DNA from: Sphingomonadales bacterium
GTDB lineage: Bacteria; Pseudomonadota; Alphaproteobacteria; Sphingomonadales; Sphingomonadaceae
Length of the DNA: 42,164 nt
Assembly (NCBI GenBank): GCA_024636595.1
Contig: JAGXGT010000142.1
Coordinates: 1 to 42,164, forward strand
Reading direction: 5' to 3'
Each line of letters opens with the position of its first letter. The stretch's first letter is position 1. The notes beneath the pieces were generated by a model. That model saw only the letters and a program-made list of their open reading frames with translations. It searched no databases and was not told where the DNA came from. A program made the translations under genes and the position numbers. This document shows positions 331-16,633 of this stretch, in pieces.

Positions 331-405
331 GGCCCCTTCGTCTAAGGGTTAGGACGCGGCCCTTTCACGGCTGAAATACGGGTTCGAATCCCGTAGGGGT
401 CACCA
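331..405 (+). tRNA. tRNA-Glu (TTC anticodon), CCA encoded
   Basis: GGCCCCTTCGTCTAAGGGTTAGGACGCGGCCCTTTCACGGCTGAAATACGGGTTCGAATCCCGTAGGGGTCACCA; acceptor GGCCCCT/AGGGGTC, anticodon loop CTTTCAC, T-loop GGTTCGAATCC. Confidence 0.95.
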
Positions 406-653: not shown

Positions 654-977
654 CAAATATTCGCCGCGGACCAACCCTGCGTCCGCTTTGCGCCCTAATT
701 ATTGCCATTCCACTGGACTGGCGCTGATGCCGGAAGCGGTCGTACATTCATCGTGAGTGATCGCAGTGACCAAGGCGCCGAGCCGCAAGAGTATTCCTCG
801 GTGATAACTTTCGTGGGTGACCTTGCGGATCCAGGATCACTGTGGTGGAACTGCGTATAAAGTACTGCAAGTCCCTCGCAAAAACTCACAAGAAAATTTT
901 GAAGCAGGCCCAGACGTTTTCCGGTAGTTAAAACGATACATAGGAATCGATGGTAACAGGGGTAAGGAAGACAGACG

Positions 978-1691
978 GTGAGTGAAGATGGTTCAGAGCC
1001 GGAAGAACTTTTCCACCCCGCGTTCGTCGCCCGCGCCCTTGAATGGACCGAGCAACTGACGCCAAAAGAGCTCTTAGCCGCGGCTAAGATCGATCAGAAG
1101 AGTGCGAGCGGCTATATTCCGGAGGCCGCGCTAGTGAGGCTGGTTCGCCGACATCGGGTCGAGGGAACCAAAGAGTTGAGCGATCGGCTGAGCCATCCGC
1201 TGATCATGCGCGCCTATGCATTCGCCCACACCGTCTGCAAGAAGTTCGGCAACGAGCAGCAGGAGCTTGTTCAAGAGGCAATGACTGCCTTCCTCGACGA
1301 TCTGGCAAAGAAGGACTCGATCGATTGGTGGGAAATCACCTTTCATCGAGAGCTCAAAACCCGGATCAAGGACGCCTATCGCCGATTGTTCAAGCGCCAT
1401 CGCGTCCGTAGCGTCATGTTCGACGAGGAGCATGAGCGCAGCGACGGCGGGGCGCTCGCGGCACGGCTGGCGCGCGACGCATCGTTGGCAGCGATCGCCG
1501 AGAAATATCTTAAGACGCCCGAGCGCCGCCGCCTGTTCATGCTGATCATGTCCGGCGACCTGCCGATCGAGGCACCCGACGGGTCCGAAGACCTGGTCCG
1601 GCTGACCGGCAAGGCGAAGAGCACGCTGGCGGGACTCAAGCAGCAATTTACGCGCATCATACAGGATGCGCTGGCGGAGAAGGAACTATGA
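978..1691 (+). CDS. Helix-rich protein resembling a divergent sigma-70-like factor (region 2-like and C-terminal HTH-like segments)
   Basis: 237 aa, GTG start; segment AYAFAHTVCKKFGNEQQELVQEAMTAFLDD...RELKTRIKDAYRRLFKRHRVRSVMFDEE looks sigma region 2-like; C-terminal LTGKAKSTLAGLKQQFTRIIQDAL could be HTH; overlaps the next ORF by 4 nt. Confidence 0.45.
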   Translation: MSEDGSEPEELFHPAFVARALEWTEQLTPKELLAAAKIDQKSASGYIPEAALVRLVRRHRVEGTKELSDRLSHPLIMRAYAFAHTVCKKFGNEQQELVQEAMTAFLDDLAKKDSIDWWEITFHRELKTRIKDAYRRLFKRHRVRSVMFDEEHERSDGGALAARLARDASLAAIAEKYLKTPERRRLFMLIMSGDLPIEAPDGSEDLVRLTGKAKSTLAGLKQQFTRIIQDALAEKEL

Positions 1692-2275
1692 CCAAAGCCA
1701 ATCCTGACCTCGGCAGCCTGGCCGAGAAGTTCATCGAACAGGGCATTTGGGACGCCGAACTGGTCGCTCGTCTCGACGATGCCGCAATCGATGAATTGTT
1801 TGAGCACCTCGTGGCGCACTCGGCCGTCGAAACGGCGGCGGCGACCGCCGACGTGGAGTCGGTGGTGCTGGACGACGAGCAGCAGGCTGCGATACTCAGC
1901 CTGCAGAGTTATTATCTCGGCGAAGTCGCGCGCCGTCCCGAAGCCGGGTCTGCCGAACAGCAATTGGCGCGCCCGTCGACATGGCTCGCGATCGAACCGG
2001 CAGTGCGCGACCGCGACTTCCTGATTCGGCTTCAGCAGCGCCGGCTGCACGGCCTCGGCCAGCGCTGCCTTCGCGACCTTGCCGATTTACTCGGTCAATC
2101 GCGCACCGCTGTGCGGGACTTTCTTGCCGGTCCGCCGGGCTATGGGCTGGCGACGGCCGAGAATCGCAACCGCGGCAAGCCGCAAGACGATGGCGTCGAG
2201 GAATTCGCCGCAGCGCTCGCCCGGTCCGAGGTCCCCGATGTCTTCAAACGACGATGGCAGGAAGACGAGCCATGA
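1688..2275 (+). CDS. Hypothetical protein of the operon, unknown function
   Basis: 195 aa ORF; ATGA overlaps with both neighbours (1688-1691 and 2272-2275). Confidence 0.7.
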   Translation: MTKANPDLGSLAEKFIEQGIWDAELVARLDDAAIDELFEHLVAHSAVETAAATADVESVVLDDEQQAAILSLQSYYLGEVARRPEAGSAEQQLARPSTWLAIEPAVRDRDFLIRLQQRRLHGLGQRCLRDLADLLGQSRTAVRDFLAGPPGYGLATAENRNRGKPQDDGVEEFAAALARSEVPDVFKRRWQEDEP

Positions 2276-5200
2276 CCGCATTCGATCTTGCGAGGCTGGC
2301 TGCACGACAGCTTCGCGGCGAGTATGTTTCGTTAGACGCCGATGGACCGACGGCGGTGGCGGCTGCGGCCGCTGCGCTTGGACTCAAGATTGAGCTGGTT
2401 CCACCCGGCGATGCATTGATCGGGACGAGCGATGCAAAGCTGCTGCGCGAATGGGATAGGATCTACGTCCGCAAGGACGTCTCGGACGCAGATGGAGCCG
2501 CCTTCGCTGCCCACGAGCTCGGTCATTTGCGACTTCATCGTCCGCAGGATGCCTGCACCGGGTCGGATCCCGACGCCCGCAGCTCGCGGGCTCTTGCCCG
2601 CGTCGATTCCTATGGACCACGGGAACGGCGTGAATTGCAGGCCAATGTCTTCGGCCGCGAGTTCCTCCTGCCGCGCGCGTTGGCCGAGCGCCTGTTCCTC
2701 AACGAACGCAAGAACGCTGCAGAGATTGCGGGCTTGCTCAAATTGCCGCCCGCCCTCGTTCGCCGGCAGTTGTTGGACAGTCTTCTAGGGCCAGACGTCG
2801 CAGAGCCCAAGAATGGCGGCGGCGGCGCTGCCAAGCCCGACCATAGCCAAATCGATGCCGCGCGGTTCGAGGGCCCCGCCCTGCTGCTTGAGGCTGGGCC
2901 GGGATCCGGCAAAACGCGCACTTTGATAATGCGGGTCGACCATCTCCTGACCACGCGCCGGGTCGCGCCCGATCAGATACTCGCTCTAACCTTCTCGAAC
3001 AAGGCGGCCGGCGAAATCGCCGAGCGGATCATGTTCGCCAACGCTGAGGCGGCGGCGGAGATGTGGACCGGAACCTTCCATGCGTTTGGTCTCGACCTCA
3101 TTCGGCGCTATTATGACCGGCTCGACCTTCCGGCCAGCGTGCAACTGATCGATCGCGCCCAGGCGATCGAATTGCTGGAGGATCGGCTGCCCCTGATGGG
3201 GCTAAAGCATTATCACGACCTGCGCTATCCGGAGCAGGCGTTGAGGACTATCCTCGGTGCGATCTCACGCGCCAAGGACGAGCTGGTCGATGCCGAGGAA
3301 TTCGGCCGACGCGCCGGCGATGCCTTTGCGGCGGCCAAGACAGCCGAGGAGATCGAGGCCGCCGAGCGCGCTTGCGAGGCGGCGCGGGTCTACGAGATCT
3401 ATACGGTCGCGCTTCGGGAAGCAGGCGCCGTAGACTTCGGCGACCTGGTGATGTTGCCGACCCGATTGCTGCTCGAAAATGAAGGCGTAAGGCAGCAGGT
3501 CGCCGCGCGGCACAGCCATGTGCTTGTCGACGAATATCAAGACGTCAATCGGGCCAGCGCCCGGTTGCTTATCGAGCTTCGCCGGGAGGGGTCGCAGCTT
3601 TGGGTGGTAGGCGACGCCCGGCAGTCGCTCTACCGGTGGCGCGGTGCGTCCTCCGCCAACATGGCCGGGTTTGAGGCCGACTTCCCGGGCGGCAAGCGAC
3701 TTCCGCTCGACCGCAATTATCGCTCGACCGACCATATCGTGACGCTCGGCAAGGTGTTCGCGCGCGACATGCGGGCCGGCCGCAACGGGCTTTCCTATAA
3801 TGCCGAAGCCGATCGCGAGGAGCAGGGGACGGCGACGCGGTTATTGGTCGGGCTCGACGACGCCTGCGAAGGCGAATTGCTCGCTCAAGAGATCATCCGC
3901 TTGCGTGAGGCCGGCGTGCCGCTCGGCGATCAGGTGGTGTTGGCGCCAACCAATGCCCGGCTCGACATCGCTGCCGATATCTTGGCGCGTCACGGTCTTG
4001 CCACCAGCCATCTAGGCTCTTTCTTCGAGCGCGAGGAGGTCCGCGATCTGTTCGCGGTGCTCGCATTACTGGCCGAAGCCAATGGCGGCGCTCTGGTGCG
4101 GGTCGCTGCGATGCGCGAGATCCGGGTCGGTGCCGCCGATGTCGGCGCGATCGTCCGACAAGCGCTCGATGAACGTGAGTCGGTAGTGTCGCTCCTCTGC
4201 CGCGCCTCCGGCATCGAGGGGATGAGCGCGAACGGTGCGGCGGCGCTCGAGCGGCTTGGCGCTCAGCTCGACGGCCTCACCCCGTACACACCGGCGTTCG
4301 ACGTGGCGGCGAGTTGGCTGATCGACCGATCCAACTATCTGCGCGACCTCGCCTCTGCGCCCGGCCCAGCCGGCGCTTCGGCCCGCGCGGCGATCCAAGC
4401 GCTCTTGACCTTCCTCGATCAGCGCGAGCTTGGCGGCCAGCCGCTCAGCCCGGCGCGTGCGCTGAAACGCATGCGCAACATCATGCTGCTGTCCGACGAT
4501 CGCGATCTCCGCAGCGTCACCTTGGGGAGAGATTCCGATGCAGTGCATCTGATGACCATCCATGGCGTAAAAGGCTTGGAATTTCCGGCCGTCCATGTCG
4601 TCGGACTGCACAAGAATTGCCTGCCCGGCATCTTCCGGCGCGACGCCAGCCCGCATCCGCCGGGTCTGATCGAGCCGGAAACGCGAGAAACCCATCTCGA
4701 GGAAGAGGAATGCCTTTTCTTCGTCGCTATCTCGCGGGCCGAAGATCATTTGCGACTCTACCATAGCGAGAAAGCCAATGTGCAGAAGCGGCAGCCCTCG
4801 CCCTTTCTGGCCCGGCTCGGGCCGCTCGAACGGCAGAATCTCGGCAGTCCAACCATCGCGATAAGTCCAGTGGCGCCGCCGCTCGCGCCGATCGCCACCG
4901 ACGCGATCAATCTGTTCGACATGCGCGACTACGAGAAGTGCCCGCTTAAGATCGCTTATCGCCGCTATTTCGGTATCCCTGGGCGGCGTCACGAGTCGCC
5001 GTTCCTGAAAACGTCGGGCGTTCTTTACCAACTGGTCGACCGGGTCGCTGAGGTCGCAGGGCCGGCTGTTGAGAGCGGGGTCGTCCAACTGCTCGACCAG
5101 ATCTGGAGCGATCGCGGCCCGGCGGATCATGGCCTTGCAGCCGATTATCGCGACCATGCCGGCCGCCAGGCGGCAACGCTCGCCCAGCTAGCCAACGGAT

Positions 5201-5607
5201 TCGATGCGGTTGATTTCAAGCGGATCGAACTGCCAATCTCAGGCGGGGCGATCCACATCGGCGCTCCTCTGGTGAAGCAGAGCGTGTCCGGAACCCAAAT
5301 CCGCTTTCTCGATGCGGGTAGGCGCCGATCGAAAAGCGGCAATGATGCCTCCGCAGGCCTGCTCTTGTCGGCAGCCCGCCTTGCATTTGGTGCGAACGCA
5401 GCTGTGTCGATTGGGCACGTAACCGGCGGCGATATCGTCCCGGTGACGCGCGATGCAGTCAAAAGCGCTGGCGATGTCGACGCCGCCGGGAGGGTCCTGG
5501 CGGCGATCAACAGCGGCATGCTGCCCCTGAAACCGACCGCCCATAATTGCGGGCGCTGCCCCTATTTCATCGGCTGTCCGGCGGTCGGCGCGCCGGAGCC
5601 CTGCTGA
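2272..5607 (+). CDS. ImmA/IrrE-like metallopeptidase domain fused to UvrD/Rep SF1 helicase with C-terminal RecB/AddB-like Fe-S region
   Basis: ATG at 2272; HELGH zinc-peptidase motif near N-terminus; Walker A GPGSGKT, TFHAFG, DEYQD Walker B, GDARQSLYRWRGA, VAISRAEDHLRLY helicase motifs; C-terminal EKCPLKIAYR ... NCGRCPYFIGCP four-cysteine pattern. Confidence 0.88.
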   Translation: MTAFDLARLAARQLRGEYVSLDADGPTAVAAAAAALGLKIELVPPGDALIGTSDAKLLREWDRIYVRKDVSDADGAAFAAHELGHLRLHRPQDACTGSDPDARSSRALARVDSYGPRERRELQANVFGREFLLPRALAERLFLNERKNAAEIAGLLKLPPALVRRQLLDSLLGPDVAEPKNGGGGAAKPDHSQIDAARFEGPALLLEAGPGSGKTRTLIMRVDHLLTTRRVAPDQILALTFSNKAAGEIAERIMFANAEAAAEMWTGTFHAFGLDLIRRYYDRLDLPASVQLIDRAQAIELLEDRLPLMGLKHYHDLRYPEQALRTILGAISRAKDELVDAEEFGRRAGDAFAAAKTAEEIEAAERACEAARVYEIYTVALREAGAVDFGDLVMLPTRLLLENEGVRQQVAARHSHVLVDEYQDVNRASARLLIELRREGSQLWVVGDARQSLYRWRGASSANMAGFEADFPGGKRLPLDRNYRSTDHIVTLGKVFARDMRAGRNGLSYNAEADREEQGTATRLLVGLDDACEGELLAQEIIRLREAGVPLGDQVVLAPTNARLDIAADILARHGLATSHLGSFFEREEVRDLFAVLALLAEANGGALVRVAAMREIRVGAADVGAIVRQALDERESVVSLLCRASGIEGMSANGAAALERLGAQLDGLTPYTPAFDVAASWLIDRSNYLRDLASAPGPAGASARAAIQALLTFLDQRELGGQPLSPARALKRMRNIMLLSDDRDLRSVTLGRDSDAVHLMTIHGVKGLEFPAVHVVGLHKNCLPGIFRRDASPHPPGLIEPETRETHLEEEECLFFVAISRAEDHLRLYHSEKANVQKRQPSPFLARLGPLERQNLGSPTIAISPVAPPLAPIATDAINLFDMRDYEKCPLKIAYRRYFGIPGRRHESPFLKTSGVLYQLVDRVAEVAGPAVESGVVQLLDQIWSDRGPADHGLAADYRDHAGRQAATLAQLANGFDAVDFKRIELPISGGAIHIGAPLVKQSVSGTQIRFLDAGRRRSKSGNDASAGLLLSAARLAFGANAAVSIGHVTGGDIVPVTRDAVKSAGDVDAAGRVLAAINSGMLPLKPTAHNCGRCPYFIGCPAVGAPEPC

Positions 5608-5644
5608 TCTTCGGATCAGACGAAATCCGGCGCTCAATTCGATG

Positions 5645-5686
5645 ACTCCGTATCCCTGGCAATTTCGCCGGGACCAAAGACGGAGT
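5645..5686 (+). promoter_or_regulatory. Strong hairpin overlapping the Shine-Dalgarno of the Ubl gene (candidate translational control element)
   Basis: ACTCCGT (5645-5651)/ACGGAGT (5680-5686) and inner TCCC-T-GGC/GCC-GGGA (5653-5673); GGAG at 5682-5685 lies about 10 nt before ATG 5696. Confidence 0.5.
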
Positions 5687-5695
5687 TTAAATCCC

Positions 5696-6157
5696 ATGCC
5701 CACCGATATCTTCATCAAGCGCAGCGGTAGCCTCGAGGTCCAGCACCGCAAGGTCGAGACGCTGGACTTTGCCGCCCTGCAGAAGGAGCTCAACAAGGCC
5801 TTCGGCGCCGGCTCGCTCTTTCTCGAGGACGAGGACGAGCCGCTGTCGCGCGACCGCCGCATCGACACCCCGAGCCTCTTCGTCCACCACAGCCGCTGCA
5901 AGCGGATTGAGGTCACCGTCCGCTATGCCGGCCGGACCTTCGAGCACAAGTTCGGACCCGGCACGACCCTCAAGACGATCAAGCGCCGGGCCGAGAAGAA
6001 GCTCGATATCGACGCCACCGACGCCGCCGAGCTCTCGCTCCAGATCGCCGGCACCAACGACCGGCCAGATGAGGCGACCCATGTCGGCTCGGTGTCCGAC
6101 CCGAGCACCTGCTCAGTGGTCTTCGACCTCGTTCCCTCCGACCGGATCAATGGCTGA
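5696..6157 (+). CDS. Probable tandem beta-grasp ubiquitin-like protein ending in Gly
   Basis: 153 aa from ATG 5696; second half RIEVTVRYAGRTFEHKFGPGTTLKTIKRRAEKKLDI...STCSVVFDLV has a Ubl-like beta-grasp pattern; C-terminus ...SDRING*; context with E2-like/JAB/E1 genes. Confidence 0.65.
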   Translation: MPTDIFIKRSGSLEVQHRKVETLDFAALQKELNKAFGAGSLFLEDEDEPLSRDRRIDTPSLFVHHSRCKRIEVTVRYAGRTFEHKFGPGTTLKTIKRRAEKKLDIDATDAAELSLQIAGTNDRPDEATHVGSVSDPSTCSVVFDLVPSDRING

Positions 6158-6611
6158 CATGACGCCCGATCGAGCCATGTTTGAGCGTGACCTTGCCGCG
6201 GCGACCTTCCTCGAGGGCGTCGCGCGCAAGCGCTGGACGTTCGTCACCGTTAGCTGGCCATTCGCGCTTTTTGCGATCATCGCTGGCGACGGGGAAATCT
6301 TCCACTTGCGGATGAACCTAGAGGGCTATCCTGCGGCGTTGCCGACCGGCGGGCTGTGGGATCTGGGGACCGATGCCATCCTCGGCGCGGATCGCTGGCC
6401 GAAAGGTGACGCCGCCTTCAGCAGCGTGTTCCGGCGCGACTGGCAAGGGGCGACGGCTCTCTATTTTCCGCTCGACCGGGTGGCGCTCAACGGCCACCAC
6501 GACTGGCCCTCCAATTACCCGCACCTCCGCTGGCACCAGGAAAAGGGCTTCGTCCAATATCTCGGCGAGGCTCATCGCCTGCTCAATTCGCGAGGCTACC
6601 ATGGCATCTGA
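6150..6611 (+). CDS. E2/UBC-like protein (prokaryotic E2 type), cysteine-free
   Basis: 153 aa from ATG 6150; E2-like features inferred from position between Ubl and JAB/E1 genes and the ...NYPHLRWHQEKGFVQYL... segment; overlaps Ubl stop. Confidence 0.55.
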   Translation: MADMTPDRAMFERDLAAATFLEGVARKRWTFVTVSWPFALFAIIAGDGEIFHLRMNLEGYPAALPTGGLWDLGTDAILGADRWPKGDAAFSSVFRRDWQGATALYFPLDRVALNGHHDWPSNYPHLRWHQEKGFVQYLGEAHRLLNSRGYHGI

Positions 6612-7092
6612 CGGCAAGCGTCTCCGCATCTCCTGGCTCTCATGGTGGCGGCTCGTGCGCCAGCTTCGTCGCCGCGGCGGCGGCCGGCGCGAGAGCGGCG
6701 CCTTTCTGCTCGGACGGCGTGACGAACAGGGCGGCGCGATTTCCGACTTCGTCTTCTACGACGACACCGACCCCGGCGCTTTGTTACGCGGCTATGTGCA
6801 TCTTGCCGGCACTGCCCTCAACAAGGTGTGGGAGCGCTGCGCAGAAACCGGCCTAGAGGTGCTGGCCGACGTGCATACCCATCCGGGCCGGGCCGACCAA
6901 AGCCCGTCCGACCAAGAGCACCCGATGGTCGCGATTAGGGGCCATATTGCGGTGATTATCCCCAACTTTGCCCGATCGACGCTGAACCTGCGCGGGGTCG
7001 GTGTCTACCGCCATTTGGGCGCCAGGAATTGGATCGTGCTGCCGGCACCGAAGCCCGGTTGGCGCGGCCTCACTTTAGAAGAGGACAAATAG
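6601..7092 (+). CDS. JAB/JAMM (Mov34/MPN/PAD-1) family peptidase
   Basis: 163 aa from ATG 6601; RRESGAFLLGRR (Glu), ADVHTHPGRADQSPSDQEHP (HxH and SxxD) JAMM residues. Confidence 0.85.
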   Translation: MASDGKRLRISWLSWWRLVRQLRRRGGGRRESGAFLLGRRDEQGGAISDFVFYDDTDPGALLRGYVHLAGTALNKVWERCAETGLEVLADVHTHPGRADQSPSDQEHPMVAIRGHIAVIIPNFARSTLNLRGVGVYRHLGARNWIVLPAPKPGWRGLTLEEDK

Positions 7093-7093
7093 A

Positions 7094-8455
7094 ATGAAGG
7101 AAGCTGACTTTGCCGCCTTTCTCGACAGCTTCAACCGGCTCGCCAAGCTGGATCTCGACCTTGGCAAGGCGGGCGACCCAGAAGCGGCCATGGCGCGGCT
7201 GCAGGGCTATGCCGTTCACATTCGTGTCGGTGCTGAAGTCGCAAGCAGCGCCGCGCATCAGATTGCCATACTGACGCTGGTCAACATCCTGTCGCGCTTC
7301 GCGCTCGGCGGCGTGACCCTGTCCGGCATGCTCGACGCACCGATGTTGGCGCCTTGGCCTGGTCGGACCCTGATGGCGGCGGTCGAGGGGCTTGGTGGCG
7401 CAGCTGGACAACCGGCCGATGATTGCCCCACCACCGTTGTGGGCACCGTCGACGACCTCGTCGACCGCACCGTCCAACTGACCTTTGAGGGATGGCGCGG
7501 AGGTATCGTCCCTGCAGGCGGCGCCCGGCTTGATGAGACAAAGGGGACGGCACTGTCCGCCGTGCTCGCGGCGGCGATCGGCGCGGCCGAGACCTTCGCC
7601 ATGCTGCGCGAAGAGGTCGACGCCGGCCGGCGCCTGCGGGGACTGTCGATCTGGAGGCCGGACGGTGATCAGGACTGGTTGTCGCCAGCAAGCGACGGGC
7701 CGCCGCTTCACCTTTTACCCACCCGGCTCTGGATCCTTGGGCTCGGCCATCTCGGACAGGCCTTTCTCTGGTCGCTCGCCATGTGCCCTTATGCTGATCG
7801 GGCCGAGGTGAGCCTGGTCCTTCAGGACATGGATGACATCACCCAATCAACGGCGAGTACCTCCATTCTGACTATGAAGGTGGCGCGCGGCCGAAAGACC
7901 CGCGACGTCGCCCGCACCTTGGAGGCGATGGGCTTCTCGACGGTGATCATCGAGCGGCCGTTTGACGACCAGTTCAAACGGCGACCGGAGGACCCATCGG
8001 TGCTGATTTGCGGCGTCGACAATGCCCATGCCCGCAGCCAGCTCGAAGGGCCCGGTTTTCCGCTCATCGTCGAGGCCGGGATCGGCCGGTCCGCTCAGGA
8101 CTTTCAAGCGATCCGGCTCCATACCTTCCCGTCTCGTCAAAAAGCGGCCAATCTCTGGAAGACAGAGATGATGGACGCGAAGGCAGCGGTCGCCGAAAGG
8201 CCAGGATATCAGCACCTGCGGGAGCGCGGCGTCGACGATTGCGGCTTGGCTCGGCTTGCGAGCACTGCGGTTGGCGCTCCTTTCGTCGGGACCGTGGCCG
8301 GCGTGCTGATGCTCGGTCAGATCCTGCGTTTGTTGCACGGCGACCAAGTAGATGCGGTGATCGACCTCGATCTTCGGGCACTTGATGCACGTCGGGCGGT
8401 ACCGAACGCCAATCCCTTCGCGCTCAATCCGGGGTTTCAGATTTGCGATGTCTGA
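7094..8455 (+). CDS. E1-like ThiF/MoeB/HesA family adenylating enzyme
   Basis: 453 aa; Rossmann motif LWILGLGHLGQAFLW, acidic LVLQDMDDI, CGVDNAHAR, and CGLARLASTAVGAPFVGTVAGV in the C-terminal half. Confidence 0.85.
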   Translation: MKEADFAAFLDSFNRLAKLDLDLGKAGDPEAAMARLQGYAVHIRVGAEVASSAAHQIAILTLVNILSRFALGGVTLSGMLDAPMLAPWPGRTLMAAVEGLGGAAGQPADDCPTTVVGTVDDLVDRTVQLTFEGWRGGIVPAGGARLDETKGTALSAVLAAAIGAAETFAMLREEVDAGRRLRGLSIWRPDGDQDWLSPASDGPPLHLLPTRLWILGLGHLGQAFLWSLAMCPYADRAEVSLVLQDMDDITQSTASTSILTMKVARGRKTRDVARTLEAMGFSTVIIERPFDDQFKRRPEDPSVLICGVDNAHARSQLEGPGFPLIVEAGIGRSAQDFQAIRLHTFPSRQKAANLWKTEMMDAKAAVAERPGYQHLRERGVDDCGLARLASTAVGAPFVGTVAGVLMLGQILRLLHGDQVDAVIDLDLRALDARRAVPNANPFALNPGFQICDV

Positions 8456-8512: not shown

Positions 8513-9463
8513 TCAATCCCGGATAAATAGGTGTCGCTTAAGGTCTCCCAGCTTCCCTTGGAGCGCGATCCGCTTGTCTATTACCTTTCTTGCCTCATTC
8601 TCCAGCAAAGGGATTCTCCGCCGCGCCTGTTCTGCCTCAGTCTCGGTTTTGTCAGAATTGAAGATTCCCCAGAACCTTTCAACCTTTGATACCACGGAAC
8701 TCATCTCATTAAGAGCTGTGCAGATCTTTTCGTGGTGTTGCGCGAGATCGGAACATTTTCGCTCCATGGCTTGCAAGTCTGGACCGGCCTCGTCGCGCTC
8801 TAACTGAAGTTCCCTTTTTGCCGTTTCGTCGAGAACAGGCTGAGGAAAGTCGGCGTTCACGATCTTGCGCAAACCGCCGAACGCGTCGATCCAATGGCAC
8901 TCCCGACTGTGCAGCCAACGCGCCAGTTCGAGCGATCGTTTGAATTTGGGGGCTAGTTCCACCACCTTCGCAGAGAATCTAGATGAACCCAACTCACGCC
9001 ACAGCTGACGAAGTTGCGGATTCTGATGAATCCCGCGATGCAATTGATCCCAGTGTTGAGATATCCTATTTTGAACGTCCTTCGATTGTCCAATATAGAC
9101 GTCATCGCCACCCCATATGGCGTAAATACCAATGGTATGTGTTGCACATATATTCGGAGTAGGAACCCGTTGCAGGTCCTGGGTGATCGTAATCTTGGCC
9201 GAGATCGACTGCCCGACAGGCTCGCCTATCTCAATCTCGTATGTGGCACCGGAATCTAGGAGCGGAGCGATGATCGCTGCGGTTCGCCTGTCGATGTGGC
9301 CGATCGTGTCCCCTTTTACGGTGACCGCGATTGCATTTGTGTCATGAGAGTTGTGCGGTTCGCGAGCAAGGGAAGGTCGCATGTGCAACAACCGAAGGGC
9401 TTCAGTCGGGGTGAAGCCATGGTATTTCATACCAACCACGTTAGCAGTGACGGTGGTCTTCAT
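8513..9463 (-). CDS. HIRAN domain fused to GIY-YIG nuclease domain
   Basis: N-terminal VVGMKYHGF...L.REPHNSHDTNAIAVTVKGDTIGHIDRRTAAIIAPLLD (HIRAN); THTIGIYAIWGGDDVYIGQSKDVQNRISQHW (GIY-YIG). Confidence 0.8.
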   Translation of the reverse strand: MKTTVTANVVGMKYHGFTPTEALRLLHMRPSLAREPHNSHDTNAIAVTVKGDTIGHIDRRTAAIIAPLLDSGATYEIEIGEPVGQSISAKITITQDLQRVPTPNICATHTIGIYAIWGGDDVYIGQSKDVQNRISQHWDQLHRGIHQNPQLRQLWRELGSSRFSAKVVELAPKFKRSLELARWLHSRECHWIDAFGGLRKIVNADFPQPVLDETAKRELQLERDEAGPDLQAMERKCSDLAQHHEKICTALNEMSSVVSKVERFWGIFNSDKTETEAEQARRRIPLLENEARKVIDKRIALQGKLGDLKRHLFIRD

Positions 9464-10146
9464 TGGCTGTCAGTCGGGCGGTAGGTCGCGACATCGGGAA
9501 ACACCTCAATTATGTGTTTGGAGAGCGCATGCCCCTTTCTCAAGCCCATCACGTGCAATGCTACCTGATAGGCTGCGTCCCAAGCTTCCCGGGTCGTTGG
9601 CCCCTTCATGGCCTCATCGTTGAGGAAATTCACCAGAACCAAGTAAGCTGGCACACCTTGCTCACGAAGAAAGTGTAGGTGGGCGATCCGATTGGCAAGC
9701 TGGTAGAAATGGTCTGTCCAAGGGGCTCTTGACACCCTTGCATCTAATCTCTCTGCGCAACTGACCAGCGCCCTATTGATTCGCTCACGTGAATCTGGTC
9801 GTGCGGCTGTTCCAGGTGAACACATTTCCGCGACATGGGCCTTCGCTTCAACCAACAGAACGTCGCCACGGTCAGAAACGCCCAGCGCATCCCATTGGGG
9901 GCCGCGCTCAGGCCAAAACTCCTTGAGAGCAGGTCGCAGGTGCGATAGCCCGACGCGGTCCAGAAAGTCGCCGTCTCGGTATTCGGCAAAATCGTCATGC
10001 TCCAGCGGCGACCGCCACTCTATCCGGTTCGATCCAGAAAGCTTCGCAAGGATCGGTTCGTCCAGCGAGGTCCAGTGATCGTTCACGGCCTGCTGGATCC
10101 ACAGTAAGCTTCCCTTGGTGCCGAGCGGTTGAACAACCCGCGTCAC
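9460..10146 (-). CDS. Putative PD-(D/E)XK superfamily nuclease
   Basis: 228 aa; PQWDALGVSDRGDVLLVEAKAHVAEM matches D-x(n)-ExK. Confidence 0.6.
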   Translation of the reverse strand: MTRVVQPLGTKGSLLWIQQAVNDHWTSLDEPILAKLSGSNRIEWRSPLEHDDFAEYRDGDFLDRVGLSHLRPALKEFWPERGPQWDALGVSDRGDVLLVEAKAHVAEMCSPGTAARPDSRERINRALVSCAERLDARVSRAPWTDHFYQLANRIAHLHFLREQGVPAYLVLVNFLNDEAMKGPTTREAWDAAYQVALHVMGLRKGHALSKHIIEVFPDVATYRPTDSQ

Positions 10147-10670
10147 AGGCCGGTGGCCAGAATGGGAGTGCTTGGGATCAATTGCGCGGAGCCGGGCTGT
10201 GGGTTCCCAAAATGTGCAGCCAGTTGAAGCGTGCGAAGCAGTGGTAGGCCGGATGGCACCGCCGCTCTTTCGGGGCGGTACTTTTTGAGATGGCTCGTGA
10301 TCTCGCAGATGAAGTCGGCCACGCGAACTACGCGCCCGCCGCCAACCTCGGTTCTCACCCCTCCTGCCATCAAGAAGAGGCCGACCTGATCCAGATCGCT
10401 GGGAAGATTGAGTCCATTGAAGAGGGACGGAACGAACCGACGTCCACGCTCAAATTTGGCAGAAAATCGAGCCTCTCGTTTCTGCCACGAATCCGCATCC
10501 AGTGAGCATTCTACATGGATTAGATGACCCGTCATTGGATTAACGGCTACGATGTCGAGTTCACCTTCGTAGCCGCCCTTTGCACGCGGTCCGACCAACA
10601 CCGACTGGCGCACAAAGTAACCGCGATACTCAAGCCACTCGGCGGTCAACTGCTCCAAATGATTGCTCAC
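10143..10670 (-). CDS. Putative restriction-endonuclease-like (PD-(D/E)XK fold) protein with atypical E-C-S
   Basis: 175 aa; GYEGELDIVAVNPMTGHLIHVECSLDADSW resembles the core but lacks the usual Lys after Glu; 4-nt overlap with the downstream nuclease gene. Confidence 0.55.
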   Translation of the reverse strand: MSNHLEQLTAEWLEYRGYFVRQSVLVGPRAKGGYEGELDIVAVNPMTGHLIHVECSLDADSWQKREARFSAKFERGRRFVPSLFNGLNLPSDLDQVGLFLMAGGVRTEVGGGRVVRVADFICEITSHLKKYRPERAAVPSGLPLLRTLQLAAHFGNPQPGSAQLIPSTPILATGL

Positions 10671-10771
10671 GCATCCCCCTTACCGCTTAGACTGATAGAT
10701 GTGTCATTGGGCATCTAAACATTGCAGGCTTCGCTTTTTGATATCGCCTGAGAACGCCCCTTACACTGCAT

Positions 10772-11146
10772 TCAACCTGTAATGGTAATCTCGATTTGCC
10801 TCGGGTCTACACCGAAGGTTGCGGCTAGCCCCGCCTTCGCCTCCGTAATTGTGAGCCGTGGAGCATCTCCGCCGCCCAATAATCGATCATCCTCGCCGTC
10901 GTCGCTACCGACATACACAAATGTCACTTTCTCGTTCTTTAAATCGAGATCGACCGCCTTCCATCCGGCAAGCTGCCAGCCGAGGCTCTGCGACCGCATC
11001 TGATTAGCCCACCATGCTTGATATGTTCTGGCGCTTGCTGGGAGCGGGACGCCGAGAACTTGCTCTACGTCCACAAAATCAGCTTCCCACCTTCCCTCAT
11101 CGAGGCCCGCTAGATGCTCAGAGAGCTTTCGGTATTTCTTACTCAT
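10772..11146 (-). CDS. DUF7662-like small protein
   Basis: 124 aa; KYRKLSEHL...FVDVEQVLGVPLPASARTYQAWWANQ...GWQLAGWKAV. Confidence 0.6.
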   Translation of the reverse strand: MSKKYRKLSEHLAGLDEGRWEADFVDVEQVLGVPLPASARTYQAWWANQMRSQSLGWQLAGWKAVDLDLKNEKVTFVYVGSDDGEDDRLLGGGDAPRLTITEAKAGLAATFGVDPRQIEITITG

Positions 11147-11165
11147 ACATCACCTTCCATTAATT

Positions 11166-11195
11166 GATGTCTATATACATATAAATGTATGTCAA
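11166..11195 (-). promoter_or_regulatory. Candidate promoter/operator for the 10772-11146 gene
   Basis: Minus strand TTGACA (-35-like, 11190-11195) followed by palindrome ATACAT-TTAT-ATGTAT (11175-11190) in AT-rich DNA. Confidence 0.35.
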
Positions 11196-11330
11196 CTTTA
11201 AAAATGGGTATTCTATTGACCGAGATTCAGGCCAATATCTAAAAGTGCTTTCCAATGACGATAAGATGAAGTGGCAGCGTTCCGGCACTTAGTACGGCCT
11301 CAATCATCCACAAGTCATTGAAAAAAATGT

Positions 11331-11395
11331 TAGACGCTGAGGGGTTCGAACCCACAACCCGTTGATTAAGAGTCAGCTGGGCTACGGCACCTTTG
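11331..11395 (-). pseudogene. Degenerate tRNA-Lys(CTT)-like fragment (anticodon arm and T arm, D arm collapsed)
   Basis: Minus strand GTGCCGTAGCCCAGCTGACTCTTAATCAACGGGTTGTGGGTTCGAACCCCTCAGCGTCTAAC; acceptor ends do not pair and the D-loop is missing. Confidence 0.55.
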
Positions 11396-11541
11396 ACCAT
11401 TCCCGGTCTGAAAACCCGCCAGTCCGGAACCGGCCCAAAAGTAGCCATCCTGTTTTGATCTTTCGAATGCTGATTTCTATCCGGCGAACGCCATCTACCA
11501 AATCCAGAATCAGAATCCGCCATCGGGTTTAAGCAAACCCA

Positions 11542-13185
11542 TCACCAATCAGAGACTTCCATCATTTGTTCTTTCCAAAAAACGGGCCCAAACGCAGTTT
11601 GACTAATCCTGCGCCGGGTCACGCTGGCAGCCTTGCTTCCATCCAGCACTTGCTCAACAAGCTCCGGCGGCAACCAACCAATACGAACCAGTTTTCCGAT
11701 CCATTGTGGCGTCTGTTCCTTTTCGGCTGCGATTTCAGCGATGGTTCGCCCACCGACTATCTGCTCACGCACCTCAAAAGCTTCGGCCAACAACAAGGAC
11801 AGCTTTTTATCAACATAGCCAGCGCCACCGCCGTCCCCAATCACCAACCTGGTCTCGCCTCCAGTTCGAATACGAACAGCGCTCATGTTGAGACATACAT
11901 CTGCCATCGCGTTACCCAGCTCTGTCTCAGTTTTCAATCTGATCTGAACTTTGTCAGTCGCCACAACAATACCATCCACCAATTCTCCAATTGCGGATTT
12001 TGTCATGAAGGCATCAACAGTGTCCAAGCGCGTCAAAAGTGATCGTCCCTGCAAGATGCAGAATGACAGATCCGTCGGATCAAAATACTGCCCGAGTTCT
12101 GCTGGACTGGTCAGGAACGTCCGCAACCGTTCGATCACGGCATTTTCCAGATCATGTGCCGGTATCCGGATGCGCGGCCTGTCGATTGTTACATTCTCTT
12201 CAGACCCGGTGACATAATAGCGATATCGCCTGTTACCCTTGGTCGCATGATTGGGAACAAGCCTGCGGCCATATTCATCGGTAAGAAGGCCGCCCAATAT
12301 CGAAGGTGATTTAGCCCGCAGACCCTGGTTTCCGCCATTGTCATTGTTTTCAAAGCGATCCTGAACATTCTGCCACAGTGCTTCATCGATTATCGCTTCA
12401 TGCTCACCGGGCCAGATTTTTTCCTTATGGACAATCTGTCCGCGATAAATGGCATTACGCAGCAGATGCTGGAGCCCGCCTCGCGTAAATGGCACCCCGC
12501 CAACGCTCTGGCCTGTTCGATATGTGCGCTGTTTGGTCTTTATGCCAAGCTCTTCGAGTTTCTCGATTGCCGCCGCCATCGAGCCACATTCCAGATATAC
12601 CTCGAATATGCGGGTGACGGTTTCGGCTTCTGCAGGCTCCACATAGAGCTTTCGGTCTTCCAATCGATATCCCAGAGGCACCGGTCCGCCCATCCACATG
12701 CCTTTCTTCTTGGATGCCGCGATCTTGTCGCGGATCCTCTCGGAAGTGACCTCTCGTTCAAACTGCGCGAAGGAGAGAAGCACATTCAGTGTTAAACGCC
12801 CCATGCTGGTGGTGGTGTTGAACGATTGGGTAACACTGACAAAGCTGGCATCAGCGGCATCCATGATATCCACAATCTTGGCGAAGTCGGCTAATGAACG
12901 GGTGAGGCGATCAACCTTGTAAACCACAATGATATCAATGCGCCCTGCCTTCACTTCGGCCATGAGCGCTGTCAATGCAGGCCTCTCCATATTGCCGCCG
13001 CTGAATCCTCCGTCATCGTATATGGTTTCATCCAGTGACCAGCCTTCATGGGTCTGGCTCATGACATAGGCGCGGCATGCCTCTCGCTGGGCATCCAGGC
13101 TGTTAAATTCCTGATCCAGACCCTCTTCGGTCGACTTGCGGGTATAGATTGCGCAGCGGCGGTTTTTTCTCGGCTCTTCCCTCAT
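11542..13185 (-). CDS. Large serine recombinase (resolvase N-terminal plus recombinase domain)
   Basis: RRCAIYTRKSTEEGLDQEFNSLDAQREACRAYV...YDDGGFSGGNMERPAL...VYKVDRLTRSLADF...FEREVTSERIRDKI. Confidence 0.95.
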   Translation of the reverse strand: MREEPRKNRRCAIYTRKSTEEGLDQEFNSLDAQREACRAYVMSQTHEGWSLDETIYDDGGFSGGNMERPALTALMAEVKAGRIDIIVVYKVDRLTRSLADFAKIVDIMDAADASFVSVTQSFNTTTSMGRLTLNVLLSFAQFEREVTSERIRDKIAASKKKGMWMGGPVPLGYRLEDRKLYVEPAEAETVTRIFEVYLECGSMAAAIEKLEELGIKTKQRTYRTGQSVGGVPFTRGGLQHLLRNAIYRGQIVHKEKIWPGEHEAIIDEALWQNVQDRFENNDNGGNQGLRAKSPSILGGLLTDEYGRRLVPNHATKGNRRYRYYVTGSEENVTIDRPRIRIPAHDLENAVIERLRTFLTSPAELGQYFDPTDLSFCILQGRSLLTRLDTVDAFMTKSAIGELVDGIVVATDKVQIRLKTETELGNAMADVCLNMSAVRIRTGGETRLVIGDGGGAGYVDKKLSLLLAEAFEVREQIVGGRTIAEIAAEKEQTPQWIGKLVRIGWLPPELVEQVLDGSKAASVTRRRISQTAFGPVFWKEQMMEVSDW

Positions 13186-13604
13186 GCCGCCGGCCTTCCG
13201 GTAAGGCCAAAGAACCGGGGGCCTGACCAGTGGGCCCCGGTGACCTCGCGGGCAATTTCGCTCAAGGATCGATAATGTTTGTCGCCTATCACAAAACCCT
13301 CGCCCGTCACCAGGACAACCAGTGTCCGGCCGTTCCAGCTGCGCACGAGGCGCGTACCGGGTTTAAGTTGATCAGGCGACCGAGGACCACCCCTGCCCTT
13401 CTTTACAAGCCTCCTGAGTTTGGCGATGCTCGCTGCTGACAAGCCGCCGATCACTTGCTCCTGCAATCTGTAAGCAATACCAAGACGCAGCATTCCCGAA
13501 CTGATATCCGGCGCTGGAGATCGATAGGCATGTTGCCATTCGACCCGCAGCTGCTTTTTTGGCATGGACTGCAACGACGCGATGCGTTGTTCAAGATTAT
13601 CCAT
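13182..13604 (-). CDS. DUF2924 family protein
   Basis: Start MDNLEQRIASL at 13604; WQHAYRSPAPDISSGMLRLGIAYRLQEQVIGGLS...PGTRLVRSWNGRTLVVLVTGEGFVIGDKHYRSLSEIAREVTG typical DUF2924; 4-nt overlap with recombinase. Confidence 0.85.
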   Translation of the reverse strand: MDNLEQRIASLQSMPKKQLRVEWQHAYRSPAPDISSGMLRLGIAYRLQEQVIGGLSAASIAKLRRLVKKGRGGPRSPDQLKPGTRLVRSWNGRTLVVLVTGEGFVIGDKHYRSLSEIAREVTGAHWSGPRFFGLTGRPAA

Positions 13605-13605
13605 A

Positions 13606-13845
13606 TCAGGCTGCCTCGATGCGATAAGTACGAGAGCCGCCTTCGGGTTTGTCGCTCGCAATTTCATAGCCGCGTTTTCGCAAGCCGGTGAGGGCGGCAC
13701 GAGCGCTATGCGGCTTCCAGGCGGTTGCCTTTGTGATATCCTCCAGGGTTGCACCCTGTTTGCGGGCGAGCATGGCAACCAGCTGGGCTGCTCGTGAACC
13801 TTTTTCCGGTTGTTCGATGGCGGTGGTCTGAGGTGTACTTGTCAT
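13606..13845 (-). CDS. DUF3489 family protein
   Basis: MTSTPQTTAIEQPEKGSRAAQLVAMLARKQGATLEDITKATAWKPHSARAALTGLRKRGYEIASDKPEGGSRTYRIEAA. Confidence 0.8.
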   Translation of the reverse strand: MTSTPQTTAIEQPEKGSRAAQLVAMLARKQGATLEDITKATAWKPHSARAALTGLRKRGYEIASDKPEGGSRTYRIEAA

Positions 13846-14070
13846 GAGTGGTTCCATTGTTGTCGGAGCCCAACATAATGCTGGCTTCCCACCACCCAAA
13901 GCCCTGAAACTCTCACGTTCAGGGCTGGTTGCGACCCTTTGGCCGCCTCCACTCACATGAACAGCAATGCTCACTTTTTTAACGAAGTCCATAAATAATT
14001 ATTCTATTTTGTAGCTTCATGCTAAATTTACAGGCGAATTATAGTATTCTCCGTTGCTGAAGGGACCCAC

Positions 14071-14769
14071 ATGCTAGTAGTTGGAAATGATATCATTGAT
14101 CGAGGACTACTGCTTGACGCAGATAAATCACATATAAGTAATGCGACTTACTATCTGACAATTGAAAAAATTATTTCAGGGGGTGACGACAAAGAAAAGT
14201 CTTCAGTTAAGATTGGACCGCGAGAGATTGTTTGGGTTGTTTCCAAAGAACGTTTCAACATTGACGACAATGATTGTATTGCGCTGGTCAGCCTAAAGAG
14301 CAGTCTTACAAAACAAGGATTGTTAGCCTTGGACACTGGTTTTGTTGATCCAGGGTTTGAGGGACCAATTGGTACGGTGCTGGTGAACTTTTCCGATAAC
14401 GATGTTTCTATTTCGAAGGGAGAGGAGTTTTTCCGAGTTATTTTCATTCCTCACGATAAACTGGATTCTGAGTTTACGAATCGTAATCAAGTGAAATTTA
14501 AATCGGTTGATGAGTACGCAAACATCCGGAAAAAGGAGATAGTACGCGACTACTCTCGAACATTTCTGAATATCGATTCAGTTGCGGAAGATGTTAAAAT
14601 TGAGATTATGAAAGACGCTACCGGCGAACTCAAAAAGGACCTCGTCATTTATTTGTGGAATCAATATTGGAAAATTATCATTCCTGGTTCAATCGTGTTG
14701 TTCCTTGGATTGAATGCTCTGCCCGACAACCTATTTGTTAAACTGGTGAAGCTATTTTTGCCCGCATAG
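14071..14769 (+). CDS. dCTP deaminase/dUTPase-fold protein with C-terminal transmembrane helix
   Basis: SSLTKQGLLALDTGFVDPGFEGPIGTVLVNFSDNDVSISKGEEFFRVIF core; C-terminal IIIPGSIVLFLGLNALP hydrophobic segment. Confidence 0.75.
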   Translation: MLVVGNDIIDRGLLLDADKSHISNATYYLTIEKIISGGDDKEKSSVKIGPREIVWVVSKERFNIDDNDCIALVSLKSSLTKQGLLALDTGFVDPGFEGPIGTVLVNFSDNDVSISKGEEFFRVIFIPHDKLDSEFTNRNQVKFKSVDEYANIRKKEIVRDYSRTFLNIDSVAEDVKIEIMKDATGELKKDLVIYLWNQYWKIIIPGSIVLFLGLNALPDNLFVKLVKLFLPA

Positions 14770-14775
14770 ACGTTT

Positions 14776-15273
14776 ATGGAAAAGGAATATGTGACAAACA
14801 TGATCGATATCCGAAAATTGATTGTCGAACCCGATAACTGGGATAAACGATTTATGGGCTTGGCTGATTTGATTTCAACGTGGAGTGAAGATCAAAGCAG
14901 AAAAGTTGGAGCTGTTATAGTAGGAAATGCGCACGAGATTCGTTCAACGGGATTTAATGGACTACCCAGAAAAATATCCGCCACGGATCAAAGACGTCAC
15001 TCGCGTGAAGAAGGAGAGAAATATCTCTGGTTCGAGCATGCAGAACGAAATGCGATATACAATGCTGCGCGCATGGGCGTACCAACGGACGGATGTACGA
15101 TTTACAGCAGTTTGTTCCCTTGCTCCGCCTGCGTAAGTGCCATTATTCAATGTGGTATAACAACTCTATGCACATTCGCTCCTCCGGATGACGATCAGCA
15201 ATTCGGAAGAAGTTTTGTTGTGGCTCTACAAATGGCAAAGGAATCCGGTCTGAAAATCAGAGTCTTCAGTTGA
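14776..15273 (+). CDS. Deoxycytidylate (dCMP)-type deaminase
   Basis: WSEDQSRKVGAVIVG..., EHAERNAIYNAARMG (HAE) and SSLFPCSACVSAIIQCGI (PCxxC) zinc motifs. Confidence 0.9.
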   Translation: MEKEYVTNMIDIRKLIVEPDNWDKRFMGLADLISTWSEDQSRKVGAVIVGNAHEIRSTGFNGLPRKISATDQRRHSREEGEKYLWFEHAERNAIYNAARMGVPTDGCTIYSSLFPCSACVSAIIQCGITTLCTFAPPDDDQQFGRSFVVALQMAKESGLKIRVFS

Positions 15274-15394
15274 TAGTAGTATCGATTTTTTAATAGAAAC
15301 ATAACAAGAACAAACTTGCGCTCTGGGAATCTTTATGCCATCGCGTCATATACGCACCCGGATCGTTCAGCGGTGCGCTCCGGGAGAAAATTAC

Positions 15395-16633
15395 ATGCTT
15401 CAAGAAACCCAGTCCTTTGTCCACGATTTCGAAAAATCAGGAATGGATCTGGAAGAAGCAGAGCAGGAACTGGGATATTCTTCCCGCCAGATAAAGCGCT
15501 TTCTTGCTGGCAAAAATGAGCCGCCCAAACTGGTGGCGGACCGGGTACGTCAAATTGCCCGCAGCAAAACACCCGGAAAGAAAGGCAAGCCTGCATTCCG
15601 GTTCATCGACCTTTTCGCAGGTATCGGCGGATTCAGACTTGGCTTTGAAGCAATTGGCGGAAAATGTGTGTTCACCAGCGAGTGGGACCGTTTTTCGCAA
15701 AAAACATATTTGCGAAACTTCCCTGATGGGGATGATCATATTTTTGCTGGCGACATCAAGCCTTATGGCGATGATCCGGCACTGGTCCCGGAGCATGAGG
15801 TTCTGCTTGCAGGCTTTCCATGCCAGCCATTTTCACTTGCCGGAGTTTCCAAAAAGAACTCGCTTGGACGCAAGCACGGATTTGATGACGAGAAACAGGG
15901 GAACCTGTTTTTCTACCTCGCGAACATCATCAAACACCACAAACCGGCGGTTTTTTTGCTGGAAAATGTCAAGAATCTCAGGAGCCATGACAAGGGCCGG
16001 ACATTTGAAGTCATACGCAGAACACTGGAGGAGGAACTGGGATATACTATCAGCTTCGAAACCATCAGTTCAGCGCCATTTGTCCCGCAGAAACGCGAAC
16101 GCATTTTCATTGCCGGTTTCAGGAAGGATACAGGTTTCAGTTTTGACGGGTTTATGAAAACCCTTCCCGAGCGCAGCGAATGGCCAACACTGGATGCTAT
16201 CATGCAGTCACACAACGAGATCGATAGCAAATATACGCTGACGCCTAACCTCTGGAAATATCTGCAGGCCTACAGGAAGAAGCATGAGGCCGCCGGAAAC
16301 GGGTTCGGGTTTACGGTCCACGGTCCGGATGATGTCGCGCGCACCCTGTCTGCCAGATATCACAAGGATGGTTCCGAGATTCTTATTGAACAGAAGGGTA
16401 CTCGCCCGAGACGCCTGACCCCGACCGAATGTGCTCGGCTTATGGGATTTGAAAACGAAACCCGAAAATGGGAGATCCCGGTATCGGATACGCAGGCCTA
16501 TCGCCAGTTCGGGAACGCAGTCGTAGTGCCGGTCGTGGAGGCGATCGCCAGATATATGGAGCCATCAATCCTCAAAGCGGTGGCGCAAGATCAGAAATCC
16601 CGCAAGGCCAGAAGTCAGGCGGTCCTTGCCTGA
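15395..16633 (+). CDS. DNA (cytosine-5) methyltransferase with N-terminal HTH-like segment
   Basis: FRFIDLFAGIGGFRLGFEAIGG, LLAGFPCQPFSLAG, FLLENVKNL, QKRERIFIAGF, RQFGNAVVVPVVEAIA; N-terminal MDLEEAEQELGYSSRQIKRFLAGKNEPP HTH-like. Confidence 0.95.
   Translation: MLQETQSFVHDFEKSGMDLEEAEQELGYSSRQIKRFLAGKNEPPKLVADRVRQIARSKTPGKKGKPAFRFIDLFAGIGGFRLGFEAIGGKCVFTSEWDRFSQKTYLRNFPDGDDHIFAGDIKPYGDDPALVPEHEVLLAGFPCQPFSLAGVSKKNSLGRKHGFDDEKQGNLFFYLANIIKHHKPAVFLLENVKNLRSHDKGRTFEVIRRTLEEELGYTISFETISSAPFVPQKRERIFIAGFRKDTGFSFDGFMKTLPERSEWPTLDAIMQSHNEIDSKYTLTPNLWKYLQAYRKKHEAAGNGFGFTVHGPDDVARTLSARYHKDGSEILIEQKGTRPRRLTPTECARLMGFENETRKWEIPVSDTQAYRQFGNAVVVPVVEAIARYMEPSILKAVAQDQKSRKARSQAVLA

What the first reader, a model, noticed from the sequence alone, without database searches (positions are those of the whole stretch)
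2272..5607. Peptidase-helicase fusion with an apparently degenerate RecB-like nuclease end
Seen: HELGH motif upstream of complete SF1 helicase motifs in one 1111-aa chain, and a C-terminal CPxK...CxxC(x5)C pattern as in AddB/Cas4-type Fe-S nucleases. I see no clear GxxDR...DxK catalytic core: the expected stretch reads IRFLDAGRRRSKSGNDASAG. Known: ImmA/IrrE peptidases cleave repressors in response to DNA damage or ssDNA. Inference: the helicase could sense processed DNA and license cleavage of a regulator, with the adjacent sigma-like protein an obvious candidate substrate.
Basis: partly seen in the sequence, partly recalled or inferred. Interest (0 to 1): 0.75.

Follow-up and report, generated by a model that had tools for sequence, protein, structure and literature searches.

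The report
Peptidase-helicase controlling bacterial ubiquitin-like defence
This protein is a protease fused to a DNA helicase with a burnt-out nuclease end, and with two companion genes (one a sigma factor) it almost always sits directly in front of bacterial ubiquitin-like defence operons, where it is probably a DNA-damage switch that turns them on.

Summary
Residues 1-1111 form an M78 (ImmA/IrrE) peptidase, a PcrA/UvrD-type SF1 helicase and a Fe-S PD-(D/E)XK domain closest to AdnA. The nuclease is dead throughout the family: 0 of 65 homologues keep the D of D-x-K, while HExxH, the helicase motifs and four cysteines are conserved. In 58 of 61 family loci with enough sequence, the same trio (sigma-like, small helical, peptidase-helicase) flanks a Bil or multi-ubiquitin/E1/DUF6527 operon; 11 UvrD paralogues show none. 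In Bil loci lacking the trio, an HTH + ImmA/IrrE pair (CapH/CapP-like) takes the slot. The sigma-like proteins are ECF-type, and a conserved two-block promoter (TTTCCGGT-N15-CGATTA) lies in the ~90-nt gap before the ubiquitin-like operon and, in Bil-type loci, before the sigma gene; the window has a diverged pair at 911-939 and 5617-5645. Best explanation: a DNA-damage controller: the helicase senses processed DNA, the peptidase cleaves a partner (probably the middle protein), and the sigma transcribes itself and bil. Linkage and promoters are shown; sensing, cleavage and substrate are inferred.

The parts
331..405 (+). tRNA-Glu (TTC), upstream edge of the block
   Evidence: ARAGORN
911..939 (+). 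candidate promoter of the sigma gene: CAGACG-N17-CGATAC, paired with 5617-5645
   Evidence: one of only two matches with at most 1 mismatch in the 2.28-Mb genome to a pattern written from the 5617 site; position conserved in L081 (65 vs 67 nt from the sigma start)
978..1691 (+). ECF-type sigma-like protein (237 aa)
   Evidence: NCBIfam sigma factor 1.6e-6; 32/41 family members hit sigma70-ECF, 29/41 Sigma70_r4_2; profile hits ECF sigma structures
1688..2275 (+). middle protein (195 aa), all-helical, weak XRE-type HTH similarity, conserved C-terminal KxxxKP...FE tail in the family; candidate peptidase substrate or anti-sigma
   Evidence: profile hit 9e-18 to the family; weak HTH hits; AF2 pLDDT 80.8, no significant fold match
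2272..5607 (+). peptidase-helicase-pseudonuclease, 1111 aa
2458..2769 (+). M78 (ImmA/IrrE) peptidase domain; HELGH at 2512-2526; invariant E121 (aligned with the E of CapP's E-x2-A-D-L-F-A stretch) at 2632-2634
   Evidence: Pfam PF06114; H81, E82, H85, E121 65/65; profile matches CapP 7t5t and IrrE
2848..4821 (+). PcrA/UvrD-type SF1A helicase
4834..5604 (+). Fe-S PD-(D/E)XK pseudonuclease domain
   Evidence: A1 profile hits AdnA; AF2 pLDDT 90.5; Foldseek AdnA/ACE1/Dna2/AddB
5302..5319 (+). degenerate D-x-K-T-G motif (reads RFLDAG)
   Evidence: 0/65 homologues have D at the catalytic position
5617..5645 (+). candidate sigma promoter of bilABCD: CAGACG-N17-CGATGA in the gap between helicase and bilA
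   Evidence: family promoter in the same gap
5696..6157 (+). bilA (ubiquitin-like)
   Evidence: PADLOC BilA 1e-42; start chosen from homologue L081
6159..6611 (+). bilB (E2-like, DUF7665); catalytic Cys replaced by Leu
   Evidence: PF24702 8.6e-53
6601..7092 (+). bilC (JAB peptidase)
   Evidence: PADLOC BilC 1.6e-57; start
7094..8455 (+). bilD (E1-like)
   Evidence: PADLOC BilD 4e-146

Best explanation
The trio 978-5607 is a DNA-damage controller of the adjacent bilABCD operon. The helicase arm, with its nuclease-dead Fe-S clamp, engages ssDNA or DNA ends made during phage attack or repair. This activates the fused M78 peptidase, which cleaves a cytoplasmic partner, most likely the abutting middle protein that holds the sigma factor (or its promoter) off. 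The ECF-type sigma then reads a dedicated promoter before its own gene and before bilA, so the ubiquitin-like system is made only on damage. Shown: architecture, dead nuclease, intact peptidase and helicase, near-obligate linkage, slot exchange with HTH + ImmA/IrrE pairs, sigma identity, conserved promoter. Inferred: DNA as the signal, cleavage, its substrate, anti-sigma role of the middle protein.
For: Downstream genes are BilA/BilC/BilD, with BilB by PF24702. Of 69 family loci, 58 of 61 with at least 2.5 kb downstream carry Bil or multi-ubiquitin operons; of 65 with enough upstream sequence the middle gene is present in 65 and the sigma gene in 61; 0 of 11 UvrD paralogues have any of them. 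Bil plasmid loci without the trio carry HTH + ImmA/IrrE in its place: L109 directly upstream, L107 and L108 divergent, L104 as an XRE-M78 fusion. M78 profile matches CapP 7t5t at 1.2e-5 and IrrE. CapP and PprI/IrrE are ssDNA-activated peptidases that cleave repressors, and CapH+CapP, CapW and CapK+CapS sit before Bub and other immune operons (PMC13373217, PMC10904395). Sigma identity. Promoter TT-N-CCGG-N14-18-CGATT in 27 of 65 helicase-to-Ubl gaps against 0.03 in shuffles and 0 on the other strand. A matrix learnt on gaps finds the regions upstream of the sigma gene, not used in training, in 85% of 20 Bil-type loci. Gap and upstream sites resemble each other within a locus more than between loci (none of 20,000 permutations). 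Extra plasmid loci L100, L101 and L102 have paired sites; four loci with HTH + ImmA/IrrE have none.
Against: No experiment. The window's own promoter pair departs from the family consensus (best family-matrix score in the gap is low) and alone is only modest (19/30 matches, shuffle p 0.033). In multi-ubiquitin-type loci the sigma gene itself is usually not preceded by the promoter (19% pass). The fold of the middle protein has no significant match and its profile does not match the CapH-like HTH protein of L109. Why a regulator would need a full ATP-driven helicase is unexplained. Three trio-family loci (L027, L037, L050) have no recognised ubiquitin-like genes.
Confidence: 0.72

Rival explanations
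1. The peptidase-helicase is a working part of the defence (effector or E3-like targeting arm): it brings the ubiquitin-like conjugation machinery to phage DNA or replication complexes, and the sigma and middle proteins alone are the regulators.
For: It is large and ATP-driven; related UvrD helicases (GajB) are defence components; linkage to two different ubiquitin-like systems.
Against: Bil loci exist without it, with HTH + ImmA/IrrE in its place; L102 keeps sigma, middle gene, promoter sites and bil but has no helicase; a ~90-nt gap with its own promoter separates it from the Ubl operon, while it abuts the middle gene (median about 3 nt).
Confidence: 0.15
2. The M78 domain is a maturation or deconjugation peptidase for the ubiquitin-like protein, filling the role of a DUB in multi-ubiquitin operons that encode no JAB peptidase as a separate gene.
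For: The multi-ubiquitin protein of L083 has a C-terminal tail beyond a Gly-Gly, and those operons often show only multiUb, E1 and DUF6527.
Against: Bil-type loci, including the window, already encode the JAB peptidase BilC; M78 enzymes of known function act on transcription factors (PMC10904395); small M78 + HTH pairs replace it.
Confidence: 0.07
3. The trio is a controller, but the peptidase cleaves the sigma-like protein itself, shutting the operon off or remodelling it. This is a variant of the best explanation, not exclusive of its regulatory core.
For: Sigma and helicase genes share an operon.
Against: The promoters imply that the sigma is an activator of the operon; the middle gene is more strictly linked to the helicase than the sigma gene (65/65 vs 61/65).
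Confidence: 0.15

Closest known systems
CapH + CapP (HTH repressor + ssDNA-activated ImmA/IrrE peptidase) of CBASS, Bub and other immune operons
   Same: M78 peptidase whose profile matches CapP among solved structures; sits before immune operons including ubiquitin-like ones; takes the same slot before bilA
   Different: peptidase fused to an SF1 helicase and a dead Fe-S nuclease; output is a sigma factor with its own promoter; partner protein not detectably homologous to a CapH-type HTH protein
PprI/IrrE - DdrO of Deinococcus
   Same: damage-responsive M78 peptidase that cleaves a regulator; ssDNA-activated (PMC10904395)
   Different: PprI has a GAF-like domain, no helicase; DdrO is a repressor, no sigma factor
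AdnA (AdnAB helicase-nuclease)
   Same: UvrD-type motor plus C-terminal Fe-S PD-(D/E)XK domain, best sequence-profile and fold match
   Different: catalytic D-x-K lost in all homologues examined; N-terminal peptidase gained
ECF sigma / anti-sigma pairs released by proteolysis
   Same: small sigma, neighbouring candidate antagonist, autoregulated promoter
   Different: cytoplasmic M78-helicase as candidate protease instead of membrane proteases; signal likely DNA
BilABCD (bacterial ISG15-like) and multi-ubiquitin/E1/DUF6527 operons
   Same: directly downstream genes
   Different: the trio is not part of the four-gene Bil system as described in the sources that could be read

Membership tests
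M78 / ImmA-IrrE peptidases | HExxH plus downstream acidic zinc ligand | tested here: met
   H81, E82, H85 and E121 invariant in 65/65; Pfam PF06114 above cut-off
SF1A (UvrD/PcrA) helicases | motifs I-VI | tested here: met
active PD-(D/E)XK Fe-S nucleases (AddB, AdnA, Cas4) | D ... D-x-K catalytic residues | tested here: not met
   0/65 with D at the motif-III aspartate position; motif-II D in 51/65 but P in the window
active PD-(D/E)XK Fe-S nucleases (AddB, AdnA, Cas4) | fold and four Fe-S cysteines | tested here: met
   AF2 and Foldseek; C890, C1093, C1096, C1102 65/65
CapH+CapP controllers | M78 peptidase upstream of an immune operon | tested here: met
CapH+CapP controllers | cognate CapH-type HTH repressor | tested here: inconclusive
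   middle protein has only weak XRE-like signals and no match to the HTH of L109
CapH+CapP controllers | ssDNA-stimulated cleavage of the partner | not testable with these tools
   needs biochemistry
ECF sigma factors | regions 2 and 4 | tested here: met
   family: 32/41 sigma70-ECF, 29/41 region 4; the window copy matches only the N-terminal half (region-2 side) of the models
ECF sigma factors | dedicated two-block promoter | tested here: met
   in the window copy only a diverged pair
BilABCD | BilA, BilB, BilC, BilD in order | tested here: met
BilABCD | catalytic Cys of BilB | tested here: not met
   Leu in the window and L081; Cys in the other complete BilBs of trio-linked loci (Cys138 per PMC11354881)

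The most novel reading that the evidence does not exclude
A DNA-damage response unlike SOS or CapH/CapP: a helicase-fused peptidase that uses its motor and a pseudonuclease clamp to read processed DNA, destroys an anti-sigma-like partner and so releases a dedicated sigma factor, used across several bacterial phyla to switch on ubiquitin-like conjugation.
Probability: 0.45. Interest if true: 0.88.

Novelty: new variant of a known kind. Interest (0 to 1): 0.76.

Why it matters
Bil systems attach ubiquitin-like proteins during phage infection, but how they are switched on is not settled in the papers that could be read here. A near-obligate controller with its own promoter makes that directly testable. 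It would add a sigma-factor type to the known damage-activated controllers (CapW, CapH+CapP, CapK+CapS), and would show a resection-type helicase converted from a nuclease into a peptidase-based sensor. The trio plus the promoter motif can also serve as a search handle for unknown immune operons.

Tried and rejected
Intact nuclease: rejected. Chance neighbourhood: rejected by 58/61 linkage with 0/11 in paralogues. The trio as an insertion peculiar to this genome: rejected, it occurs on plasmids and chromosomes of several phyla. A generic sigma-70 promoter scan gave nothing above chance. Searching own-class genomes for PF14452 and PF24702 to measure reverse linkage gave too few hits to count; plasmid records were used instead. 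Fold search of the middle protein was not significant. No relative covering 80% of the query in phage records. In the divergent loci L009 and L064 the promoter pattern was not found. Literature: Chambers 2024, Gong 2025, Ye 2026 and Burroughs 2011 are not held, so prior description of the trio cannot be excluded; the held EMBO J 2026 and Genome Biology 2006 papers do not contain the word helicase.
Full report
Observation. The chain at 2272-5607 has 1111 residues. Pfam places an M78 peptidase at 63-166 and UvrD helicase domains at 193-829; the closest solved helicase is PcrA. Aligned with 64 homologues, HExxH, E121, the SF1 motifs and all four cysteines are invariant or nearly so, while the aspartate of D-x-K is absent in all 65 and the lysine is mostly arginine, giving R-x-R-T-G where AdnA has D-x-K-T-G. 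The C-terminal model is confident (pLDDT 90.5) and matches AdnA, ACE1, Dna2, AddB and RecC. The domain is therefore a family-wide pseudonuclease that keeps its Fe-S scaffold.

Surroundings. PADLOC identifies BilA, BilC and BilD directly downstream, and PF24702 marks BilB at 6165-6605. Upstream lie a sigma-like gene and a small gene, the three joined by 4-nt stop/start overlaps. The block begins about 500 nt past a tRNA-Glu gene.

Linkage. A scan of 84,980 species genomes gave 69 family loci among the best 80; the other 11 were ordinary UvrD-type paralogues and served as a control. With profiles built from a few seeds, 58 of 61 loci with enough downstream sequence carry a ubiquitin-like operon: BilABCD, or multi-ubiquitin + DUF6791/ThiF E1 + DUF6527, plus three hybrids. 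The middle gene is present in 65 of 65 and the sigma gene in 61 of 65; none of the 11 paralogues has any of these genes. The loci come from Pseudomonadota, Chloroflexota, Acidobacteriota, Nitrospirota, Planctomycetota, Myxococcota and Verrucomicrobiota. On the helicase tree the two operon types are strongly clustered (4 changes against 18.9 shuffled), so the trio mostly travels with its operon.

Slot exchange. Among BilD-bearing plasmids several carry the trio (L081, L082, L099, L100, L101, L106). L102 keeps sigma, middle gene and bil but has no helicase gene. L105 keeps only a helicase C-terminus-like end before bilA (seen directly in the sequence printed). Where the trio is absent, an HTH + ImmA/IrrE pair or an XRE-M78 fusion sits upstream of or divergent from bilA (L104, L107, L108, L109). 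No examined Bil locus had both; L103 showed neither, with an IS66 element upstream. CapH+CapP pairs of this kind are known controllers of immune operons, activated by ssDNA (PMC13373217; PMC10904395). The M78 profile of this family finds CapP (7t5t) and IrrE among solved structures (the better-scoring designed repeat protein there matches only repeated short helical units, each insignificant alone).

Sigma factor and promoter. 32 of 41 family members of the sigma-like protein match the NCBIfam sigma70-ECF model and 29 match sigma region 4. The gap between helicase stop and the first ubiquitin-like gene is about 90 nt, whereas the helicase gene abuts the middle gene. Reading these gaps showed a shared two-block element, TTTCCGGT - about 15 nt - CGATTA. 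A strict form occurs in 27 of 65 gaps (0.03 expected in shuffles, 0.38 in random windows of the same loci, 0 on the opposite strand) with a near-fixed spacer. A matrix learnt on the gaps scores the region before the sigma gene, not used in training, at p <= 0.05 in 85% of 20 Bil-type loci but only 19% of 48 others. Gap and upstream sites are more alike within a locus than between loci (mean 17.9 against a maximum of 17.5 in 20,000 permutations), including variant forms such as TTCCGGTTTTT...TTCGCTCC in L012 and TTCCGATTT...GCGACTT in L049. Three additional plasmid loci (L100, L101, L102) carry paired sites by the same reading, while the four loci with HTH + ImmA/IrrE show none. This is what a dedicated, autoregulated sigma factor would leave behind.

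The window copy. Its sites have drifted: CAGACG-N17-CGAT at 911-939 and 5617-5645. As a pair they are only modestly significant (p 0.033). They are, however, the only matches with at most one mismatch in the 2.28-Mb genome to a pattern written from the 5617 site (partly circular), and the relative L081 has the same pair at the same distances (65 vs 67 nt before sigma, 78 vs 79 nt before bilA). The window's sigma protein is itself divergent and matches only the region-2 side of the sigma models.

Mechanism. Most likely the helicase arm, held by the pseudonuclease clamp, detects ssDNA or ends and activates the M78 domain. The peptidase then inactivates the middle protein, and the sigma transcribes its own operon and bil. 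Steps after 'M78 peptidase next to a sigma and its promoter' are inference. The middle protein is all-helical with faint XRE-type similarity, has a conserved C-terminal tail and is the gene most strictly tied to the helicase, hence the favoured substrate.

Limits. Nothing was tested at the bench. Profile labels for ubiquitin-like genes come from few seeds. Key papers on Bil and Bub operons were not available, so an earlier description of these genes cannot be ruled out.

Noticed in passing
6159-6611: BilB (E2-like) of the window and of its 67% relative L081 lacks the catalytic cysteine (LPCDR -> FPLDR / MPLDR) and any other cysteine, while the other complete BilBs of trio-linked loci keep it. 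Conjugation here may be E2-independent or altered.
   Followed up: partly
L033, L042, L048: Hybrid operons combining a multi-ubiquitin protein with BilC/BilD-like genes behind the same trio.
   Followed up: no
L009:3-3719, L064:1442-5576: Divergent arrangement: multi-ubiquitin (with extra C-terminal domain), E1-like protein and, in L064, DUF6527 on the opposite strand from a different sigma-like gene + middle gene + helicase; family promoter not found there.
   Followed up: partly
L102:4635-10350: Cupriavidus plasmid keeps sigma, middle gene, both promoter sites and bilABCD but has no peptidase-helicase gene: a natural deletion for testing.
   Followed up: partly
L081:5370-7416: In the closest relative the sigma gene is split by an IS256-family insertion.
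   Followed up: no
L050:11591-11700: Thermoanaerobaculia locus with trio and family promoter but no recognised ubiquitin-like gene downstream; a different regulon may follow.
   Followed up: no
8513-18418: Rest of the island: HIRAN + GIY-YIG protein (8513-9463), large serine recombinase (11542-13185), C5 cytosine methylase (15335-16633) with MvaI/BcnI-type restriction enzyme (16976-18418).
   Followed up: no
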